Assembly (NCBI RefSeq): GCF_030646165.1 | Contig: NZ_JAUTDO010000010.1 | Location: forward strand, 1-64,000 | DNA from: Conexibacter sp. CPCC 206217 | GTDB taxonomy: Bacteria > Actinomycetota > Thermoleophilia > Solirubrobacterales > Solirubrobacteraceae | DNA length: 64,000 nt | Direction: 5' to 3' | Shown: one piece after another, positions 4,838-42,777 of the stretch | Numbering within the stretch: the stretch's first letter is position 1 | How the letters are laid out: every line of letters starts with the position of its first letter | Notes under the pieces: generated by a model | Seen by the model: the letters and a program-made list of their open reading frames with translations, nothing else | Database searches by the model: none | Told to the model about the DNA's origin: nothing | Translations under genes and position numbers: made by a program

Positions 4838-5838
4838 GCGCCACCACGACCTCCTCCAAGCCGTCTCGCCACGCGCTGCGCCCAAGCGTCCTGGTCGAGC
4901 GCTCCGGTCTCGTGATCGCCTGGATCGTCGCGATCGCGGTGTTCGGGATCCTCAAGCCCGACACGTTCCTGACGAGCGCGAACTTCTCGACGATCTTCGG
5001 CTCCCAGGCCGTCCTCGTCGTGCTCGCGCTGGCGCTCGTCGTGCCGTTGACGGCCGGCGACTACGACCTCTCGATCGCCGGCGTGCTGGCGCTCTCCAGC
5101 ATGCTCGTCGCCTACCTCAACGCCGAGCACGGCGTGCCGCTCGCGTTCGCGATCCTGGCGGCGCTCGGGGCCGGCGCGCTCGTCGGGGCGATCAACGGCG
5201 CGCTCGCGGCCGTCTTCGAGATCGATCCGTTCATCGTCACGCTCGGAACGGGCACGATCCTCGAAGGACTCGTGCTCTGGCTCTCGGACTCGCAGACGAT
5301 CAGCGGCATCTCGACGACGCTCAGCGACGCCGTCATCACGACGAGATTCCTCGGCGTCGCGCTCGGCTTCTGGTACGGGATCGCGCTCTGCGTCGTGCTG
5401 TGGATCGTGTTCGAGTACACGCCGCTGGGGCGACGGCTGCTGTTCGTCGGCCGCGGCCGGCGCGTCGCGGCGCTGTCGGGCTTCAACCTGCGGCGGCTGC
5501 GCTGGGGCGCGCTGATCGCCAGCGGCACGATCGCCGCCTTCGCGGGCGTCCTCTACGCCGGCGTGACCGGCGGCGCGGACCCGTCCAGCGGCGCGACGTT
5601 CCTGTTGCCCGCGTACGCGGCTGCCTTCCTCGGCGCGACCGCGATCGTCCCCGGTCGCTTCAACCCCTGGGGAACGGTGATCGCCGTCTACTTCCTCGTG
5701 ACCGGCATCACCGGCCTGACGATCCTCGGCGCCGCCGCGTGGGTGCAGGACGTCTTCTACGGCACCGCGCTGGTGCTCGCCGTCGCGTTGTCGACGTGGT
5801 CGCGCCGCCGCAGCGGCGCCGCGGCGGCGGACGGATGA
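4834..5838 (+). CDS. ABC transporter permease (branched/sugar type)
   Basis: A 334-residue integral membrane protein of the RbsC/BPD_transp_2 class with about eight to ten hydrophobic segments, beginning IAWIVAIAVFGIL and LVVLALALVVPLTAGDYDLS. The LTAGDYDLSIAGV block and the ATPase-contact loop around FEYTPLGRRLLFVGR are typical for sugar-type permeases. Its start overlaps the ATPase stop (ATGA at 4834-4837). Only one permease gene is present, so a homodimeric channel is expected, as in ribose transporters. A 49-base gap with a strong AAGGAG site then leads to hydantoinase A. Confidence 0.92.
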   Translation: MSATTTSSKPSRHALRPSVLVERSGLVIAWIVAIAVFGILKPDTFLTSANFSTIFGSQAVLVVLALALVVPLTAGDYDLSIAGVLALSSMLVAYLNAEHGVPLAFAILAALGAGALVGAINGALAAVFEIDPFIVTLGTGTILEGLVLWLSDSQTISGISTTLSDAVITTRFLGVALGFWYGIALCVVLWIVFEYTPLGRRLLFVGRGRRVAALSGFNLRRLRWGALIASGTIAAFAGVLYAGVTGGADPSSGATFLLPAYAAAFLGATAIVPGRFNPWGTVIAVYFLVTGITGLTILGAAAWVQDVFYGTALVLAVALSTWSRRRSGAAAADG

Positions 5839-5887
5839 GCGGCGCGGCGATGACCTTCACGAACACCAAGACCAAGGAGTCCGACAC

Positions 5888-8053
5888 GTGCTGCTGGTAG
5901 GCATCGACATCGGCGGCACCTTCACCGACCTCGCGCTCTACGACTCCGATGCGGGTCGCGTGGCGGTGCACAAGGTCCGCTCCACCCCCGACGACCCCGG
6001 CCGCGCGCTCGTGACCGGGATCGTCGAGCTGTGCGCCGCCGCCGGCGTCGCGCCCGGCGACCTCGACGGCGTGCTGCACGGCACGACCGTCGCGACCAAC
6101 GCGGTGCTTGAGCACCGCGGCGCGCGCACCGGAATGGTCACGACGGAGGGCGTGCGCGACGTCGTGCACATCGGCCGCCATCAGCGCCCAGAGCCGTACT
6201 CGGTGATGCTCGACATCCCGTGGCAGGCGACGCCGTTCGTGCGCCGCGCCCACCGCCTCACCGTCCCGGAGCGGATCGCGTCGAGCGGCGAGGTGATCGT
6301 GGCGCTCGACGAGGAGCGCGTGCGCAGCGTCGCCCGCGCGCTCGGCGAGGCCGGCGTCGAGGCGGTCGCGATCTGCTTCCTCTTCTCCTACGTCGACGCC
6401 GCGCACGAACAGCGCGCGGCGGAGATCGTGCGCGAGGAGCTGCCCGCGGCATTCGTCACGACCTCGGCCGACGTCTCGCCGCAGTTCCGCGAGTTCGAGC
6501 GCTTCACGACGGCGGCGATGAACGCCTTCGTCGGGCCCGGCACGGGCAGATACCTGGAGCGCCTGACCGCCGGTCTGGAGCGCGAGGGCGTCGGCGCCGA
6601 CCTGCTCGTGATGCGCTCCAACGGTGGCGTCGCGAGCGTCGCCGAGGCCGCCGCGCGGCCCGTCACGCTGATGCTCTCCGGCCCCGCCGCCGGCGTGCTC
6701 GGCGCGCGCTGGGCGGCCGGTCTGGCCGGGCGCGAGCGGCTGATCACGTTCGACATGGGCGGCACCAGCGCCGACATCGGGATCGTGACCGAGGACGGCG
6801 TCGCGGAGGCGTCCGCGCGCGACACCGAGATCGCCGGCTTCCCGCTCCTGGTGCCGATGTTCGACATCCAGACGATCGGCGCCGGCGGCGGCTCGATCGC
6901 ACGCCTGGACGAGGCCGGCGGCTTCCGGGTCGGTCCGCGCAGCGCGGGCGCCGTGCCCGGCCCGGCCTGCTACGGCTTCGGCGGCACCGAGGCGACGATC
7001 TCCGACGCGCACCTCGTGCTCGGACGGCTGGACCCGGAGCGCTTCCTCGGCGGCGACATGGCGCTCGACACGGCCGCCGCGGAGGCGGTCGTCGACCGGC
7101 TCGCCGGCCAGCTCGGCCTCGACCGGCTCGCGGCGGCCGAGGGGATCCTGCGGCTGGCGAACGCCAGCATGGCGCAGACGATCCGCTCGATCACCGTCGA
7201 GCGGGGCCACGACCCGCGCGACTTCAGCCTCGTCGCGTTCGGCGGCGCCGGCCCGCTGCACGCGGCCGAGCTGGCCGACGCGATCGGCATCCGCGAGGTC
7301 GTCGTGCCGCCGCATCCCGGCATCACCTCGGCCGCCGGCCTGCTCACCTCCGATCTGCGCTACGACCACATGCGCACCGTCTTCATGACCGAGGGCGCGA
7401 TCGACGGCGACGCGATCAACCGGCAGTTCGAGGAGCTGGCCGGCGAGCTGCTCGCACGGCTGCTGCGCGACGGAGCCGACGCGGCCGACGTGACGATCGA
7501 GCGGGCGCTCGACTGCCGCTACGCGGGCCAGGGCTACGAGCTGCGGATCCCCGCCGGCAAGGGCTTCACGCCGCAGGTGCTGGAGGCGTTCCACGCCGCC
7601 CACAGAGCGGAGTACGGCCACCACTTCGCTGATCCGATCGAGCTCGTCAACCTGCGCGTGACGGTCTCGGGACCGCGCCCGAAGCTGGAGCGCGTCGAGA
7701 TCGGCAGCGGGACGCTGGAGCAGGCGCAGATCGGCGAGCAGACGGGCGTCTGGCGCGTCGGCGACGAGCTGGTGGCGCGCCCGACGCGCCAGCTGCTGCG
7801 CGAGCGGCTGCCGCTGGAGGAGCCGATCGCCGGTCCCGCGATCGTCTTCCAGCGCGACACGACCGTCGTCGTGCCGCCCGGCTGGAGCGCGACCGCCACG
7901 CCCGGCGGCGCGCTGCTGCTGAACGCGACGGGCGTGCAGCACGGAGCCGCCGCCGACGATGACGTGACCGCCGACGGCGCGACCGCCACCGACCAGACCG
8001 CCGACCGCGCGACCGCCACCGACCAGACCGAGACGAGAGGAGCGCTCGCATGA
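5888..8053 (+). CDS. hyuA: Hydantoinase/oxoprolinase A subunit (HyuA)
   Basis: A 721-residue cytoplasmic ATP-dependent ring-opening amidohydrolase subunit. The actin-like ATPase motifs are visible: VGIDIGGTFTDLALYD at the N-terminus (Hydant_A_N) and ITFDMGGTSADIGIV near residue 290, then GAGGGSIARLDEAGGFRVGP. GTG at 5888 is chosen because AAGGAG (5874-5879) lies 8 bases before it and the protein starts right at the IDIGGT strand. The family acts on hydantoins, 5-oxoproline or N-methylhydantoin with subunit B; substrate is not predictable. The last 30 residues are an Asp/Thr/Ala-rich tail encoded by a 30-base tandem duplication. The stop overlaps hyuB as ATGA. Confidence 0.9.
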   Translation: MLLVGIDIGGTFTDLALYDSDAGRVAVHKVRSTPDDPGRALVTGIVELCAAAGVAPGDLDGVLHGTTVATNAVLEHRGARTGMVTTEGVRDVVHIGRHQRPEPYSVMLDIPWQATPFVRRAHRLTVPERIASSGEVIVALDEERVRSVARALGEAGVEAVAICFLFSYVDAAHEQRAAEIVREELPAAFVTTSADVSPQFREFERFTTAAMNAFVGPGTGRYLERLTAGLEREGVGADLLVMRSNGGVASVAEAAARPVTLMLSGPAAGVLGARWAAGLAGRERLITFDMGGTSADIGIVTEDGVAEASARDTEIAGFPLLVPMFDIQTIGAGGGSIARLDEAGGFRVGPRSAGAVPGPACYGFGGTEATISDAHLVLGRLDPERFLGGDMALDTAAAEAVVDRLAGQLGLDRLAAAEGILRLANASMAQTIRSITVERGHDPRDFSLVAFGGAGPLHAAELADAIGIREVVVPPHPGITSAAGLLTSDLRYDHMRTVFMTEGAIDGDAINRQFEELAGELLARLLRDGADAADVTIERALDCRYAGQGYELRIPAGKGFTPQVLEAFHAAHRAEYGHHFADPIELVNLRVTVSGPRPKLERVEIGSGTLEQAQIGEQTGVWRVGDELVARPTRQLLRERLPLEEPIAGPAIVFQRDTTVVVPPGWSATATPGGALLLNATGVQHGAAADDDVTADGATATDQTADRATATDQTETRGALA
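7971..8030 (+). repeat. Tandem 30-base duplication in the hyuA tail
   Basis: Bases 7971-8000 and 8001-8030 are identical except for one base and encode ADGATATDQT and ADRATATDQT. The repeat lies beyond the conserved HyuA fold in a low-complexity C-terminal extension, so copy-number change there would be tolerated. Confidence 0.85.
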
Positions 8054-36966: not shown

Positions 36967-38694
36967 TCACGCCCGCGGCGTCGGACCCGGGTCGTGCTCG
37001 ATCCGCGCGTCCTCCTCGGACTCCGCCTCCGAGGGCTGCGCCAGATCCAGCGGCCCGCGGCCGTCGAGGTCCAGGCGCGCGTCCTCGAGGTCGAGGTCGT
37101 GCTGGATCCGGCGCAGGACCTCGTCGTTGATGACGCCGTCGTTGCGCAGCCGGATGATCTCGGCGCGCTCCGCTTCGAGCACCTCGCGGCGCAGTAGCTG
37201 GTAGGCCTGGGAGCGGGCCTCGTCGGCGCCGTCGTCGTCGTCGTCGAAGCGCGAGCCGAAGCGGCGGATGCGGAACTCGTAGGAGTTGCGCAGGCGCTGG
37301 GCGCTGACGTCGCGGACCCAGTCCTCGCCCTGCAGCTCGTCGATCCGCCCGATCGCTCTTCTGGCCGCCTTGATGCGCGCCTTCGCCTCGAGTCTGTCGA
37401 GCCTGCCGTCGTCCTCGACGCCGAGCAGCCTGATCAGCGGCGCCAGCGACAGCCCCTCGACCAGCAGCGTCGCGAGGATCGTGACGTAGACGAGGAAGAT
37501 GATCAGGTCGCGACCGGGGAAGGGCGCGCCGCCGTCGACCGTCAAGGGGATCGCGAGCGCCGCGGCGAGCGAGACGGCGCCGCGCATGCCGGTCCAGCCG
37601 ACGAGCGCGACGGCGCCCGGCTTGTAGTCGGGCCCGTCCCACGGCGAGTGCTTCAGCCACAGTCTTGGCACGTATGTCGCAACGGCGACCCACGCGAAGC
37701 GGGTCACGACGACAACAGTGAAGACGAGCGCGCTCCACCAGACGAGGTCGGCGACCGCGTACTTGTCGGCGATCCGCTCGACGATCTGCGGCAGCTGCAG
37801 GCCGACGAGCACGAACAGCGCCGCGTTCAGCACGAACGTGAGGATCTCCCAGACCGAGAACGACTGGATCCGCACCGCGGGCGTGATCAGCTCCGGCGCG
37901 CGCCATCCCAGCCAGATCCCGATCGTGACGGCCGCCAGCACGGCGCTGACGCCGAGCGCCTCCGCCGGCAGGTAGGCGAAGTACGGCGTCATCAGCGAGA
38001 TCGTGATCTCCGTCGGCGGGTCGTCGACGACCCTGCGCACGCGCGCCACGATCATCCCGACGACGATCCCGATCGCGATCCCCGCGGCCGCGCCGACGAC
38101 GAAGTCGAGCCCGGAGTCGAGCAGCGAGAAGGTCCCGGTCAGCGTCGCCGCGACGGCCGCTTTGTAGATGATCAGGCCGGAGGAGTCGTTCAGCAGCGAC
38201 TCGCCCTCGACGATCGTGACGAAGCGCCGCGGCGCGCCGGCGCGGGAGGCGATCGCGGTCGCGGCGACGGGGTCGGTCGGCGACAGCACGGCACCGAGCG
38301 TGAACGCCGCGGCCCAGCTGAGGTCGTTGATGAACGCGTGCGCGACGAGGCCCACCGTGAGCGTGGTGGCGATCACGAGCCCGACCGCCAGCAGCCCGAT
38401 CGGCGCGAGGTTCGCGCGCAGGTCGCGCAGCGAGGAGAAGAACGCGGCGGAGTACAGCAGCGGCGGCAGCAGCACGACCAGCACGAGGTCCGGATCGAGG
38501 TCGACGTCCGGCAGTCCCGGCACGAACGCGAGCGCGCCGCCGCCGACGACGAGCAGGATCGGGTACGGGATCCGCGCGTGATACGCGACCACGAGCAGGC
38601 AGGTGACACCCGCGAGCACGCCCAGCAGGACGAGGTCCAGCGAGCTGCCTGCGGAGGAGGCGAACGTCAAGGTCTGGGAGGCGACCGCATGCAT
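36967..38694 (-). CDS. CPA1-family Na+(K+)/H+ antiporter
   Basis: A 575-residue antiporter with about twelve hydrophobic segments. Signature blocks are VLSPTDPVAATAI with the transport Asp, TIVEGESLLNDSSGLIIYK and GWTGMRGAVSLAAALAIPL. A cytoplasmic tail of about 150 charged residues follows (LEAKARIKAARRAIGRIDEL, then an Asp-rich DDDDDGADEA stretch) and is probably regulatory. It exchanges cytoplasmic sodium or potassium for protons. Confidence 0.92.
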   Translation of the reverse strand: MHAVASQTLTFASSAGSSLDLVLLGVLAGVTCLLVVAYHARIPYPILLVVGGGALAFVPGLPDVDLDPDLVLVVLLPPLLYSAAFFSSLRDLRANLAPIGLLAVGLVIATTLTVGLVAHAFINDLSWAAAFTLGAVLSPTDPVAATAIASRAGAPRRFVTIVEGESLLNDSSGLIIYKAAVAATLTGTFSLLDSGLDFVVGAAAGIAIGIVVGMIVARVRRVVDDPPTEITISLMTPYFAYLPAEALGVSAVLAAVTIGIWLGWRAPELITPAVRIQSFSVWEILTFVLNAALFVLVGLQLPQIVERIADKYAVADLVWWSALVFTVVVVTRFAWVAVATYVPRLWLKHSPWDGPDYKPGAVALVGWTGMRGAVSLAAALAIPLTVDGGAPFPGRDLIIFLVYVTILATLLVEGLSLAPLIRLLGVEDDGRLDRLEAKARIKAARRAIGRIDELQGEDWVRDVSAQRLRNSYEFRIRRFGSRFDDDDDGADEARSQAYQLLRREVLEAERAEIIRLRNDGVINDEVLRRIQHDLDLEDARLDLDGRGPLDLAQPSEAESEEDARIEHDPGPTPRA

Positions 38695-38718: not shown

Positions 38719-39366
38719 CTATGCCGCGACGGGCATCCCGAGCATCGTGCGGAAGGCGACGGTGTCGTTGAGGTGCGGGAACGGCTCGTCGGGGATCGCC
38801 ACGCCGAGGAAGTCGCACAGCGGCGCCCAGCCCTGTCTGACGTCGAAGACGAGCAGGCGGTCGGCCGGTACCTTGCGCTTGACGTCCTCGATGTGTCTGT
38901 GGAAGACCTCGAACGCGTAGGCCTTGTCGAGGAAGCGGCCGTTGAACGCGCCGTCCCAGATGATCCCGTTGATGATCTCCAGCACGGCGCCGGCGGGAGC
39001 GCTCTCGGTGTTGCCGGCCAGCTCGCCGCGTCCCGCCATCTCCTTCGCCTCGAAGATCGTCGAGAGGCAGCTGCGATACCACGCCTCCGGGTCGCGGACG
39101 CTCAGCAGCACGAGCGCGTCCGGGAACGTCTCGGCGTGCTCCTCCCAGTAGGCGCAGGCGGGCCAGTCGATCGTCGAGCCCCAGCCGTCGAGCGCCTCGC
39201 GCCAGTCGACCCGCTCGCCCGCCACGGCGGCCTTCCACGGCGCCGCCAGCGACGGCTCGCGCAGCACGTCGATCATGTGCAGGCACGGGCCGGCGCCGAG
39301 CTGCTCCAGCGCCGCCTTCTGGGACATCGTCCCGGTCCGGCCGAAGCCGCCTCCGATCACCTTCAT
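38719..39366 (-). CDS. P-loop sulfotransferase-family protein
   Basis: A 215-residue protein starting MKVIGGGFGRTGTMSQKAAL. The GRTGT loop is the phosphate-binding site for PAPS in the Sulfotransfer_4 family (often mis-annotated as epimerase). LVLLSVRDPEAWYRSC is the 3'-phosphate-binding strand with Arg and Ser. It starts 14 bases after the stop of the type III polyketide synthase gene, so the two are surely co-transcribed. An acceptor made by the synthase is a natural guess. Confidence 0.85.
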   Translation of the reverse strand: MKVIGGGFGRTGTMSQKAALEQLGAGPCLHMIDVLREPSLAAPWKAAVAGERVDWREALDGWGSTIDWPACAYWEEHAETFPDALVLLSVRDPEAWYRSCLSTIFEAKEMAGRGELAGNTESAPAGAVLEIINGIIWDGAFNGRFLDKAYAFEVFHRHIEDVKRKVPADRLLVFDVRQGWAPLCDFLGVAIPDEPFPHLNDTVAFRTMLGMPVAA

Positions 39367-39380
39367 CGTCTCTCCTCTCG

Positions 39381-40478
39381 TCACCATCTCAGCAGCGCAA
39401 GCCCGACCGTCACCCCGGGGCCGATCGTCACCATCAGCCCGTGCTGCCCCGGTCGGGGCGCGCGCCGTGCTGTCAATTCATCGAGCACGAAGAAGGCCGA
39501 CGGCGTGCCGACGTTGCCGTACTCCGCGAGCACCGCGGCGCTCGCCTCGGTGTCGTGCTCGGTCAGCCCGACGCCCGCCTGGATCCCCTCGAGGATTCCG
39601 CGCCCGCCGGGATGGACCGGCCAGTGGTCGATCGCGGATCGGGTCAGCCCGTGACGTGCGAGGAAGGCGTCGATCAACTGCGCGAGCTGCGTGCGCGCGT
39701 AGATCGGGAGCGCCTTGCTCATCTGCACCTGGCTGTCACCGGCGGTCATGACGGACTTGACGTCGGCGAGCGAGCCGGGGATCTGGTGCACGGCGGTGGC
39801 CGCGATCGTGGGGAGGGTCGCGGGCTCAGGTCCGGCGCCTTCGTAGGTCAGCAGCGCCGCCGCGGCGCCGTCGCCGAACAGCGACGAGCCGACCGTCTTG
39901 ACCTTCTCGTCCACGGCCGGGTCGACGGGGGTGAGGATCCCGGACATGTATTCCGCCGCGACGACGAGCGCCCGCTGTCCGGGGCGGTCGCGCAGCGCCT
40001 GGCCGGCGAGCCGCAGCAGCGGCACCGCGCTCGCGCAGCCGACGCCGATCACGTGGTACTTGTCGACGTCGGCGGGGAGGCCGAGTCGGTCGACGAGCCG
40101 GTGCGCGAGCGTCGGCGTGCCGAACGACCCGAGGCTCGCGCTGACGACGACGCCGATCTCGGCTGGGTCGAAGTCGAGCTGCGCGATCGCCTCCTCGGCG
40201 AGTCCCAGCGACCGCCGCTCGCTCAGCGCGGAGCGTGCCTGCAGCGTCTGGCGCAGCAGCTCGGGCGTCAGGTCGAGGTGGCGCCGCTGGACGCCGCAGC
40301 GCGTGAAGATCGCCTGCGCGAACGGGTCGTCGGCGAGCCCGAGCAGCTCCAGCATCTGCCGCTGGTCGAGCGTCTGCGCGGGCGCGGCCGTGGCGAGGCC
40401 GGCGAGCTTGGGGAGCGCCGCGCGGGTGTCGTCGAAGCGGCGTGGAGCGTGCGTGGGGGAGAGCGTCTGTTCGAGCAT
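39381..40478 (-). CDS. Type III polyketide synthase (chalcone synthase-like)
   Basis: A 365-residue thiolase-fold synthase with the complete triad: Cys148 in YHVIGVGCASAVPLLRLA, His289 in WPVHPGGRGILEGI and Asn322 in EYGNVGTPSAFFVL. FGDGAAAALLTYEG and the C-terminal GPGVTVGLALLRW are also typical. It extends an acyl-CoA starter with malonyl units to pyrones or resorcinols. The ATG at 40478 begins MLEQTLSPTHAP; upstream in-frame starts look worse. A 23-base palindrome lies 88 bases upstream, and a NarL-type response regulator is divergent. Confidence 0.9.
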   Translation of the reverse strand: MLEQTLSPTHAPRRFDDTRAALPKLAGLATAAPAQTLDQRQMLELLGLADDPFAQAIFTRCGVQRRHLDLTPELLRQTLQARSALSERRSLGLAEEAIAQLDFDPAEIGVVVSASLGSFGTPTLAHRLVDRLGLPADVDKYHVIGVGCASAVPLLRLAGQALRDRPGQRALVVAAEYMSGILTPVDPAVDEKVKTVGSSLFGDGAAAALLTYEGAGPEPATLPTIAATAVHQIPGSLADVKSVMTAGDSQVQMSKALPIYARTQLAQLIDAFLARHGLTRSAIDHWPVHPGGRGILEGIQAGVGLTEHDTEASAAVLAEYGNVGTPSAFFVLDELTARRAPRPGQHGLMVTIGPGVTVGLALLRW

Positions 40479-40565
40479 GTTCGGCCCCGAACACTGGTCG
40501 CCGCGCGGCCCCGCCACAAGGCGCACGAGACCGCACAGTTGAGCGGGCGCGGGCTACGCAAGCGG

Positions 40566-40588
40566 CGTTCCGTAGTGACTACGGAACG
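40566..40588. promoter_or_regulatory. 23-base perfect palindrome between polyketide synthase and response regulator
   Basis: CGTTCCGTAG, a three-base spacer TGA, and CTACGGAACG: ten-base perfect arms, in the 214-base space between two divergent genes. This looks like a dimeric operator for both. Confidence 0.65.
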
Positions 40589-40612: not shown

Positions 40613-40720
40613 ATGATCGACGAACGAACCGATGCCGTGACGAAGCCCGAGCCAGGGAGTTCCCACCCAGGCGTCGGGCTCAGCGAACCTCTGTGGAACT
40701 CCCAAGGCAAACGCGTTTGA
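40613..40720 (+). CDS. Possible 35-residue leader ORF before the response regulator
   Basis: The frame starts MIDERTDAVTKPEPGSSHPG and ends with its TGA overlapping an in-frame TTG of the response regulator (TTGA at 40717-40720). This could be a coupled leader, or chance if the regulator starts at GTG 40693. Low confidence. Confidence 0.2.
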   Translation: MIDERTDAVTKPEPGSSHPGVGLSEPLWNSQGKRV

Positions 40721-41355
40721 CCGTCGTGCTCGCCGACGACCACGAGATCGTCCGCAGCGGCCTGCGCCTGCTGCTGGAGTCCGACGACGCGATCGCGGTC
40801 GTGGCGGAGGCGGGCGAGGTGGGCGCGACGGTGGAGGCGGTCGAGCGGCTGCGCCCCGACGTGCTCGTGCTGGACCTGCACATGCCCGGCGAGCCGAGCC
40901 TCGCCGCGATCCCGCGGCTGCGCGCGAGCTGCCCGGAGACCGCGGTCGTGGTGCTGACGGCCCAGCGCGACCCCTCCTACGCGGGCGAGGCGCTGCGACT
41001 GGGCGCGACCGGCTACGTCCCGAAGGAGGCGGCCGGCCGCCATCTGCTCGAAGCGATCCGCACGGTCGCGGGCGGCGGCACCTACCTGGAGCCGCAGCTG
41101 GGCGCGCGGCTGGCCGCCACGACGGCCGCGGCGGCCGGCGCGGCGCCGGAGCTGTCCACGCGCGAGCTGGAGGTCCTGCGCCTGATCGCTCGCGGACTCA
41201 CGAACAGAGAGATCGCCGAGCGGTTGTACCTGTCGGTCCGCACCGTCGAATCGCACCGCGCGCGGATCCAGCGCAAGCTCGGCCGCGCGCGCCGGTCCGA
41301 CCTCGTCGACTACGCCTTGGAGCGCGGGCTGATCGAGGCGTCGGAGCTGGGATGA
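40693..41355 (+). CDS. NarL/LuxR-type response regulator
   Basis: About 220 residues: receiver domain (VVLADDHEIVRSGLRLLLES with the acidic pair, phosphorylated Asp in LVLDLHMPG, Thr in VVLTAQRD, Lys in YVPKEAA) and a LuxR helix-turn-helix (STRELEVLRLIARGLTNREI, LYLSVRTVESHRARIQRKL). The start is GTG 40693 or TTG 40717. The convergent PAS histidine kinase ends 40 bases away and is its probable partner; the divergent polyketide synthase operon is a probable target. Confidence 0.9.
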   Translation: MELPRQTRLTVVLADDHEIVRSGLRLLLESDDAIAVVAEAGEVGATVEAVERLRPDVLVLDLHMPGEPSLAAIPRLRASCPETAVVVLTAQRDPSYAGEALRLGATGYVPKEAAGRHLLEAIRTVAGGGTYLEPQLGARLAATTAAAAGAAPELSTRELEVLRLIARGLTNREIAERLYLSVRTVESHRARIQRKLGRARRSDLVDYALERGLIEASELG

Positions 41356-41399
41356 GCGGTCGTCCGCTGGTCTGTGGGACCAGTGACCGACCGCTCATC
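41351..41399. terminator. Bidirectional hairpin between response regulator and kinase genes
   Basis: GATGAGCGGTCG (41351-41362) pairs with CGACCGCTCATC (41388-41399), and inside it CTGGTC (41367-41372) pairs with GACCAG (41378-41383). Both stop codons lie within the outer arms. The structure can terminate both convergent transcripts. Confidence 0.7.
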
Positions 41400-42777
41400 C
41401 GCCGAGCGGCAGCGCCGCGACGACCTCGGTGCCGTCGCCGGCGGCGGTCGTGATCGTCAGGTCGCCTTCGAGCAGGTCGACGCGCTCGCGGATCGAGCGC
41501 AGGCCGTAGCCGCCGGCGTCGCTGGTCGCGTCGAAGCCGGAGCCGTCGTCGCGGACGCGGACGTGCAGGACGCCCGCCGCCGGCGGATCCTCCGAATCCG
41601 ACGACGGCGACCCCGCCGGTGGCGGCTCGACCTGCGTGATCTCGACCCCGATCCGCGTCGCGCCCGCGTGGCGGGCGGCGTTGGAGAGGCACTCCTGGAC
41701 GATCCGATAGGCCGTCGTCTCGACCTCCGAGGCGAGGCGCCGCGGCGCGCCGTCGTCGCCGTGCAGCGCGACGGTCGTGTCGACCTCGATCCCGTACGCG
41801 GTCTGCATCCGGTCGGCGAGGTCGCGCACCGACGCCTCCAGCCCCAGCTCGTCGAGCGCCGCCGGGCGCAGGTCGTTGATCAACCCGCGCAGGTTGTCCA
41901 TCGTCCCCTCGATCTGCTCCTGCGCGAGCGCGATGCGTGCCCGCATCAACTCCGGCGTCGGCGCCCGCTCGCCCGAGGAGAGCAGCACGTGCAGCGCGGC
42001 GAGGCCCTGCAGCGTCTCGTCGTGCAGCTCCCGCGCCCAGCGCGCCCGCTCGGCCTCGGCGGCCTGCATGCGTGCGCGCGCGGCGCGCTCGCTCGCCTTC
42101 TGGATCACGCCGAGCCCCTGCAGCGGAGCCCCGTCCTCGTCGCGGATCAGCGAGACGGTGACGTGCACCCACAGCGTCTCCCCGTTGCGCCGCACGTAGC
42201 GCTTGTCGATCCCGAAGCCGGGGATCTCGCCCGCGAACATGCGCGCGACGAGCCGCTCGCCGGAGTCGACGTCGTCGGGGTGGGTGATGTCGCTGAAGGT
42301 CCGCTCGCGCAACTCGGCGGCGTCGTAGCCGGTCAGCCGCGCGTAAGCGTCGTTGACCTCGGCCAGGCGCCGGTCCTCCCCGATCAACGCCATCGCGACC
42401 GGTCCGTCCTCGAACAGCCGCCGGAACCGCTCGCCGGCCTCGCGCAGCCCGGTCGCTCTGGCGCGCCGCAGCGTCACGTCGCGCAGCGCGACGGCGAGGG
42501 CGGGGCCGTCGACGCCCTCGATCCCGTCGATCACGCGCACCGAGATCTCGACCGGGAACTCGCGCCCGTCCGTGCGCTTGAGCGTCAGTCTCGCGTCGGG
42601 GTCGAGCACGCCCTGCGGGATCAGCGCGTCGAAGCGCGCGCCGACCAGGTCGCTCGCGCCGCCGCCCGCCAGCTCCGCGGCACGCTCGTCGGCGACGGCG
42701 ACGAGCCCGTGCCGATCGAGCACGATCGTCGGATCGGGCGCGAGCTGCAGCAGGGCGGCGAGCTGGTCGGCGGTCAC
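41395..42777 (-). CDS. PAS-domain histidine kinase (HisKA_3, NarX/DesK type)
   Basis: A 460-residue kinase, soluble as far as I can see. The order is PAS 1 (residues 1-110; LLQLAPDPTIVLDRHGLVAV), PAS 2 (110-235; RRLFEDGPVAMALIGEDRRL), dimerisation/phosphoacceptor helix with WARELHDETLQGLAALHVLL, and an ATPase domain (AYRIVQECLSNAARHAGATR N-box, GGYGLRSIRERVDLLEG). It should sense a cytoplasmic cue or redox state and phosphorylate the adjacent response regulator. GTG start follows a TAGACT box by 9 bases. Confidence 0.9.
   Translation of the reverse strand: MTADQLAALLQLAPDPTIVLDRHGLVAVADERAAELAGGGASDLVGARFDALIPQGVLDPDARLTLKRTDGREFPVEISVRVIDGIEGVDGPALAVALRDVTLRRARATGLREAGERFRRLFEDGPVAMALIGEDRRLAEVNDAYARLTGYDAAELRERTFSDITHPDDVDSGERLVARMFAGEIPGFGIDKRYVRRNGETLWVHVTVSLIRDEDGAPLQGLGVIQKASERAARARMQAAEAERARWARELHDETLQGLAALHVLLSSGERAPTPELMRARIALAQEQIEGTMDNLRGLINDLRPAALDELGLEASVRDLADRMQTAYGIEVDTTVALHGDDGAPRRLASEVETTAYRIVQECLSNAARHAGATRIGVEITQVEPPPAGSPSSDSEDPPAAGVLHVRVRDDGSGFDATSDAGGYGLRSIRERVDLLEGDLTITTAAGDGTEVVAALPLGG

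What the first reader, a model, noticed from the sequence alone, without database searches (positions are those of the whole stretch)
38719..40478. Type III polyketide synthase and sulfotransferase in one operon
The synthase has its full Cys-His-Asn triad and the sulfotransferase an intact GRTGT loop; the genes are 14 bases apart. A sulfated alkylpyrone or alkylresorcinol is the simplest prediction. A NarL-type two-component system is divergent. I do not recall this as a characterised pairing in this lineage.
Basis: partly seen in the sequence, partly recalled or inferred. Interest (0 to 1): 0.55.

Follow-up and report, generated by a model that had tools for sequence, protein, structure and literature searches.

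The report
Polyketide synthase fused to sulfotransferase
A small soil-bacterium operon makes an unknown polyketide and probably adds a sulfate to it, and in some relatives the two enzymes are one protein, which supports the idea that they work together.

Summary
Window 39381-40478 (-) encodes a type III polyketide synthase (PKS) with an intact Cys148-His289-Asn322 triad. Fourteen bases downstream, 38719-39366 (-) encodes a Pfam PF17784 sulfotransferase (ST) with an intact GRTGT loop.

The pair is conserved. The PKS clade was found only in the window's order: 25 of 146 family genomes plus 2 of a sister family. All 27 have an ST directly beside the PKS: tandem PKS>ST in 7, an ST-PKS fusion in one open frame in 7, a divergent second-type ST in 13. 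The fusions group together on both the PKS and ST trees. None of 77 distant type III PKS loci has such an ST within the flank held (at most 6 kb).

Best explanation: the PKS makes a phenolic or enolic polyketide and the ST sulfonates it with PAPS. A divergent LuxR-type response regulator, adjacent in 6 of 7 tandem loci, probably controls the operon through a palindrome at 40566-40588. The product is unknown.

Type III PKS plus ST pairings are known (adipostatins; Mtb rv1372/rv1373). New here: lineage, PF17784 partner, fusion. Against simplicity: four fused ST domains have lost the presumed catalytic Asp.

The parts
39381..40478 (-). type III polyketide synthase gene, 365 aa (C148, H289, N322)
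38719..39366 (-). PF17784 sulfotransferase gene (ST-A type), 215 aa; GRTGT loop 9-13, D67, R91, S99
40566..40588 (.). perfect 23-base inverted repeat (11-base arms, 1-base spacer) in the divergent intergenic region; proposed response-regulator operator
   Evidence: degenerate counterparts at the same place in L062, L063, L064, L066, L192
40514..40520 (-). CTTGTGG element about 40 bases before the PKS start; its first six bases are identical in 6 of 6 aligned intergenic regions, the last in 5 of 6; possible promoter element
   Evidence: positions from its alignment
40693..41355 (+). NarL/LuxR-type response regulator, divergent from the PKS (start codon uncertain)
41395..42777 (-). PAS / HisKA_3 sensor kinase, converging on the response regulator; likely its partner
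36967..38694 (-). Na+/H+ antiporter gene starting 24 bases after the ST stop; possible third operon gene, kept in 3 of 7 tandem loci (window, L062, L064)

Best explanation
The two genes form a dedicated two-enzyme pathway. The type III PKS extends an acyl-CoA starter with malonyl-CoA and cyclises the chain to a pyrone or phenol (inferred from family and triad; product not shown). The PF17784 sulfotransferase then transfers SO3 from PAPS to a hydroxyl of that product (inferred from conserved PAPS-site motifs, APS kinase in every ST genome of a 101-genome set, conserved adjacency and fusion). A divergent NarL/LuxR-type response regulator, probably with the neighbouring PAS histidine kinase, likely controls the operon through the palindrome at 40566-40588 (inferred). 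In one sub-lineage the ST has become the N-terminal domain of the PKS. In 19 of the 20 loci outside the tandem group a second, divergent ST (ST-B) accompanies or replaces it.
For: PKS fold and triad. ST family and motifs. Conservation: all 27 genomes found with the PKS clade have an ST beside it. Seven are fused without an internal stop; they are one clade on the PKS tree (SH-aLRT 88, below that tool's star level) and on the ST tree (100/99). Specificity: 0 of 77 distant type III PKS loci show such an ST in the flank held (48 of 77 with about 6 kb on both sides, 69 of 77 with at least 1.5 kb). Nine same-order genomes with other type III PKSs over most of the length (G025, G027, G041, G042, G044, G048, G056, G057, G094) show no ST match. 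Surroundings differ between genera while the pair stays together. PAPS: apsK in 23 of 23 ST genomes against 69 of 101 overall, hypergeometric 3.7e-5, not corrected for relatedness; in G047 an APS kinase gene lies beside ST-B, one gene away from the fused gene. The own-genome CysH has the Cys pattern of an APS reductase, so PAPS is probably not needed for sulfate assimilation. Regulation: response regulator divergent and adjacent in 6 of 7 tandem loci across two families; the 15-base core of the palindrome has one place in the 5.94 Mb genome, an exact match.
Against: No product, transcript or activity is known. In 13 of 27 genomes the partner is ST-B, a different subfamily, so one fixed ST is not required. 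In 4 of 7 fused proteins the presumed catalytic Asp is Gly. ST-A-type genes also occur without this PKS (G086, 84% complete, and G073). G002 of the same genus has three STs but no PKS hit (77% complete), and G001 of the same genus has neither. PF17784 includes SgdX2, whose paper title calls it an 'activating' sulfotransferase (family by similarity to this ST), so the sulfate need not remain in the product.
Confidence: 0.62

Rival explanations
1. Activating sulfonation: the ST puts a sulfate on an enol or hydroxyl of the PKS product or an enzyme-bound intermediate only to make a leaving group, so that elimination, cyclisation or release follows. The final product carries no sulfate.
For: The second-best solved relative is SgdX2 (E 1.7e-56), called an 'activating sulfotransferase' in the title of its structure paper (reference list of PMC11677658). 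A fused ST would have direct access to intermediates.
Against: The adp system, a type III PKS beside an ST, keeps the sulfates in the product (PMC12135136, first part and passages). No further enzyme that would complete such a step is shared across the loci; the ST is the only partner common to all.
Confidence: 0.17
2. In part of the family, above all the four g2 fusions, the fused ST domain is not catalytic. It has become a PAP/PAPS-binding or structural domain, and the separate ST-B does the sulfation.
For: The Asp that aligns with the presumed base is Gly in L067, L068, L069 and L071, while all four have an adjacent ST-B with the Asp.
Against: The same domains keep the RTGT loop, R91 and S99. 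Their path lengths (0.51 and 0.60) are close to those of the attached PKS domains (0.74 and 0.46), so they still seem constrained. The window's ST and the three g15 fusions keep the Asp.
Confidence: 0.12
3. The ST acts on another substrate, such as a lipid or a xenobiotic, and is only co-regulated with the PKS.
For: ST-A-type genes without the PKS exist in G086 and G073, beside other genes. The window's genome has two other genes that match the ST profile.
Against: Adjacency in 27 of 27 and fusion in 7.
Confidence: 0.09

Closest known systems
adp cluster of Streptomyces davaonensis (adpPKS-adpST-adpP1-P3; sulfated adipostatins; PMC12135136)
   Same: Type III PKS beside an ST in an operon; PAPS-dependent sulfation of the PKS product was shown there (first part of the full text and passages read).
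   Different: A dedicated PAPS cassette is in that operon; here none flanks the pair in the window, and one relative (G047) has an apsK near the locus. No fusion or two-component regulator was mentioned in the parts I read. The ST family of AdpST was not tested here.
rv1371-rv1372(pks18)-rv1373 operon of Mycobacterium tuberculosis (PMC13141999)
   Same: Type III PKS followed closely (5 bases) by an ST gene, co-transcribed (passages read). Pks18 is among the nearest folds to this PKS (Z 41.9).
   Different: A putative desaturase gene precedes. The ST is described as a glycolipid ST; its family was not tested here. No fusion.
SgdX2 (PDB 8y9p) and 9kf1 sulfotransferases
   Same: Clear homologues by sequence: E 1.7e-56 and 1.6e-58, with the GFGRTGT and ST-x-DWPA motifs shared.
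   Different: SgdX2 belongs to sungeidine biosynthesis (title only). No link to a type III PKS is known to me.
Schistosoma SULT-OR (PDB 4mua and others)
   Same: More distant homologue (E 1.5e-19); aligns over the RTGT loop, the Asp and the Arg...Ser motif.
   Different: Eukaryotic enzyme; its PAP binding and catalytic Asp are recalled, not tested here.
DpgA (3,5-dihydroxyphenylacetyl-CoA synthase)
   Same: Best NCBIfam model for this PKS and aligned over nearly the full length.
   Different: 158 bits against a cut-off of 425; two DpgA-like loci score 635 and 659 and five other type III PKSs 133-197. It falls outside that group on the tree.

Membership tests
type III polyketide synthase | Cys-His-Asn catalytic triad | tested here: met
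   C148, H289, N322; invariant in 13 of 13 rows
type III polyketide synthase | chalcone/stilbene synthase fold and Pfam domains | tested here: met
   Pfam above cut-off; AlphaFold model pLDDT 83.2; the 50 PDB entries listed have Z 40.8-42.5, headed by Pks11, with Pks18 and plant type III PKSs
type III polyketide synthase | malonyl-CoA condensation activity and product | not testable with these tools
   needs enzyme assay
PF17784 sulfotransferase | profile score above the curated cut-off | tested here: met
   198.3 against 22.8 bits
PF17784 sulfotransferase | 5'-phosphosulfate loop and 3'-phosphate Arg...Ser motif | tested here: met
   GRTGT 9-13, R91, S99; R10, T13, R91 and S99 invariant in 26 of 26 rows. 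The roles of these residues are recalled.
PF17784 sulfotransferase | Asp in ST-x-DWPA (presumed base) | tested here: met
   D67 in the window protein; present in 33 of the 37 ST domains, the four g2 fusions being the exceptions
PF17784 sulfotransferase | PAPS binding and sulfotransfer | not testable with these tools
   needs assay
DpgA | score over the NF042429 cut-off | tested here: not met
   158.1 against 425 bits
adp-type sulfation cassette | type III PKS and ST in one operon | tested here: inconclusive
   same strand and 14-base gap, as an operon would be; co-transcription not shown
adp-type sulfation cassette | dedicated PAPS biosynthesis genes in the operon | tested here: not met
   none among the flanking window genes scanned; the three apsK genes of the genome are on contigs C1, C5 and C25, the pair is on C2. 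One relative, G047, has apsK near the locus.
adp-type sulfation cassette | ST homologous to AdpST | not tested
   AdpST sequence was not at hand
activating sulfotransferase (SgdX2-like) | sulfate serves as a leaving group | not testable with these tools
   sequence similarity only

The most novel reading that the evidence does not exclude
The fused proteins are bifunctional synthase-sulfotransferases in which the ST domain acts on the growing or newly released polyketide at the synthase itself, so that sulfonation steers cyclisation or release. Where ST-B is also present, the two STs give a doubly sulfated product or one with two different sites.
Probability: 0.15. Interest if true: 0.75.

Novelty: new variant of a known kind. 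Interest (0 to 1): 0.5.

Why it matters
From general knowledge, the acceptors of most bacterial STs are unknown. A natural ST-PKS fusion ties a sulfotransferase to its synthase, so one purified protein could show the product and the sulfation step together. It also gives an experimental entry into the chemistry of this order: my two searches on it listed five papers, none of which by its title or the start of its abstract describes a type III PKS product from it; I did not open them.

Tried and rejected
DpgA as the identity of the PKS was rejected.

Assigning a starter or product from tunnel residues: Pks18 positions 144, 148 and 205 correspond, by the alignment to its M. marinum homologue, to G117, T121 and M178 (variation; their role in Pks18 and the shared numbering are recalled). 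They vary within the clade (position 117 is G, C, V or Y), so no product was assigned. Pks11 heads the fold list, but plant enzymes are tied within one Z unit, so 'alkylpyrone synthase' was not claimed.

Other conserved partners were sought and none common to all was found (26 loci, home-made gene calling; the four loci were not gene-called). The antiporter is kept in 3 of 7 tandem loci. Genes for F420 synthesis flank the pair in part of g15, probably by location only: the cofD cluster beside ST-B in 6 of 12 g15 loci and the cofC cluster beside the PKS in 5 of 12. Only the L072 copies were identified with Pfam, the others by clustering. Pfam was run on a choice of neighbours, not on all.

The fused model (pTM 0.64) has a low-confidence linker (residues 199-221), and I drew nothing about domain docking from it. 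I ran no fold search with it.

The single-term literature search for SgdX2 by word start returned unrelated papers; the whole-word repeat gave three.

The palindrome: at up to one mismatch the reversed control pattern also has one hit per strand in the genome. Uniqueness of the core alone is therefore weak; the argument rests on the exact 11-base arms and on conservation of place.

Three of these (L082-L084) are clade members already counted; the other 77 are the control set, 29 of them with a flank shorter than about 6 kb on at least one side. The apsK association is not corrected for relatedness. The class and phylum searches were samples (399 and 396 genomes), so the sister family was not searched in full; the family search was given as whole.

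For it I ran, which showed the four late STs to be of the ST-B type by their loop motif, and mended several statements: flank of the controls, place of apsK in G047, extent of the palindrome search, place of the second inverted repeat.

Full report
WHAT IS THERE. The window holds a type III polyketide synthase (PKS) gene at 39381-40478 and a sulfotransferase (ST) gene at 38719-39366, both on the minus strand and 14 bases apart. The PKS has the chalcone/stilbene synthase Pfam domains above cut-off, and the ST matches PF17784 with 198.3 bits against a cut-off of 22.8. Upstream and divergent is a NarL/LuxR-type response regulator. A PAS histidine kinase lies beyond it and converges on it, so the phrase 'two-component system is divergent' is right for the regulator only. 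Downstream, 24 bases after the ST stop, a Na+/H+ antiporter gene begins.

INTACT ENZYMES. Cys148, His289 and Asn322 are invariant in 13 of 13 aligned rows. An AlphaFold model (pLDDT 83.2) matches solved type III PKSs: the 50 entries listed have Z 40.8-42.5, with M. tuberculosis Pks11 first and Pks18 close, tied with many plant enzymes. In the ST, R10, T13, R91 and S99 are invariant in 26 of 26 rows. Asp67 aligns with the Asp of Schistosoma SULT-OR that I recall as its proposed catalytic base.

CONSERVATION. A profile of the PKS clade, at E <= 1e-60, finds 25 of 146 genomes of the window's family, 22 of 399 sampled from the class and 1 of 396 sampled from the phylum, the window's own. The union is 27 genomes in four genera and two families of one order; the second family was only sampled. 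All 27 have a PF17784-type ST directly beside the PKS. In 7 it follows the PKS in tandem: five of the window's genus (G000, G003-G006) and two of a sister family (G067, G373). In 7 it is the N-terminal domain of the PKS itself: G007, G031, G047, G060, G054, G334, G398. In 13 a divergent ST of a second subfamily (ST-B) stands beside the PKS; for the last four of these (G785, G787, G789, G790) the subfamily was judged by its loop motif alone. Six of the seven fused loci also have such an ST-B; G334 does not.

THE FUSION. The ST and PKS matches share one open frame of 561-722 codons without a stop. The linkers that I read in L067 and L068 contain no Met codon. The fused members form one clade on the PKS tree (SH-aLRT 88, 109 rows) and on the ST tree (100/99, 45 rows), where the ST-A set lies apart from ST-B. 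The simplest history is a tandem pair, one fusion event, and gain of ST-B with loss of ST-A in part of one genus.

CONTROLS. In 77 distant named type III PKS loci (about 25-35% identical) none shows a PF17784-like ST in the flank held. Of the 77, 48 have about 6 kb on both sides and 69 at least 1.5 kb. All five ST hits of that scan lie in the three clade loci L082-L084. Nine relatives in the same order with other type III PKSs over most of the length show no ST match in the genome. The genes around the pair differ between genera, so the pair travels together.

PAPS SUPPLY. apsK is found in 69 of 101 relatives and in all 23 that have the ST (hypergeometric 3.7e-5, not corrected for relatedness). 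In G047 an APS kinase gene lies beside ST-B, one gene away from the fused gene, and in G038 one lies beside an ST. The window's genome has three apsK genes, none on the contig of the pair. Its CysH carries the CC...CxxC and ECGLHG pattern of an APS reductase (pattern recalled), so PAPS is probably made for sulfation.

REGULATION. The intergenic region between regulator and PKS holds a perfect inverted repeat with 11-base arms (40566-40588). Its 15-base core has one place in the genome at up to one mismatch, an exact match (the reversed control pattern also gives one hit per strand). Degenerate counterparts lie at the same place in five other tandem loci from both families, with a CTTGTG(G) element about 40 bases before the PKS start. 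The regulator is adjacent in 6 of 7 tandem loci; in L065 the nearest one is about 6 kb away.

RESULTS AGAINST. Four fused ST domains, all of genus g2, have Gly in place of the Asp, though tree path lengths suggest they are still constrained. ST-A-type genes exist without this PKS in G086 and G073. One genome of the window's genus lacks both genes (G001), and another (G002, 77% complete) has STs only. The product is unknown.

WHAT IT MOST LIKELY DOES. The PKS builds a small phenol or pyrone and the ST sulfonates it with PAPS. Shown: genes, motifs, conservation, fusion. Inferred: reaction order, sulfated product, regulation. The main rival is an 'activating' sulfonation as named for SgdX2, a homologue of this ST.

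KNOWN RELATIVES. adpPKS/adpST of Streptomyces davaonensis makes sulfated adipostatins (PMC12135136; first part of the full text and passages). rv1372/rv1373 of M. tuberculosis is a co-transcribed type III PKS and ST pair (PMC13141999, passages). I found no description of an ST-type III PKS fusion or of this pair in this order (listings; open PMC papers only). It is therefore a new variant of a known kind.

LINEAGE. The genus is probably Conexibacter: a relative (G003) is a single contig of 6,359,369 bases, a length I recall for C. woesei; no tool named it. Two of these records are titled as Solirubrobacteraceae or Solirubrobacterales MAGs and one only as a bacterium MAG.

Noticed in passing
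L072, L183, L184, L188, L189, L190: In six g15 loci the PKS/ST-B pair sits among coenzyme F420 biosynthesis genes (cofD cluster beside ST-B in all six, cofC cluster beside the PKS in five; cofE and an fbiC-like gene near). Pfam was run on L072 only.
   Followed up: partly
L067, L068, L069, L071 (fused ST domains): The otherwise conserved Asp of the ST-x-DWP motif is Gly in all four g2 fusions, while the PAPS-loop residues stay; a His follows a few residues later in all four.
   Followed up: partly
window 40478-40493: A second inverted repeat (TGTTCGGGGCCGAACA) touches the start codon of the PKS; the other loci gave no such repeat at that place.
   Followed up: no
L065:11641-12282, L074:2911-3552, L075 near 4913-5500: A fatty-acid-hydroxylase-family gene (L075 by clustering only) lies within about 2.5 kb of an ST-A-type gene in three loci, two of them without the PKS.
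   Followed up: no
L130: A type III PKS contig titled Klebsiella pneumoniae (MAG) groups with proteobacterial and myxococcal MAGs; possibly a mislabelled record.
   Followed up: no
L080:4791-5336 and 5396-6028 (G038:C66): An APS kinase gene lies beside an ST with the LPRTGT loop in a genome without this PKS clade.
   Followed up: no
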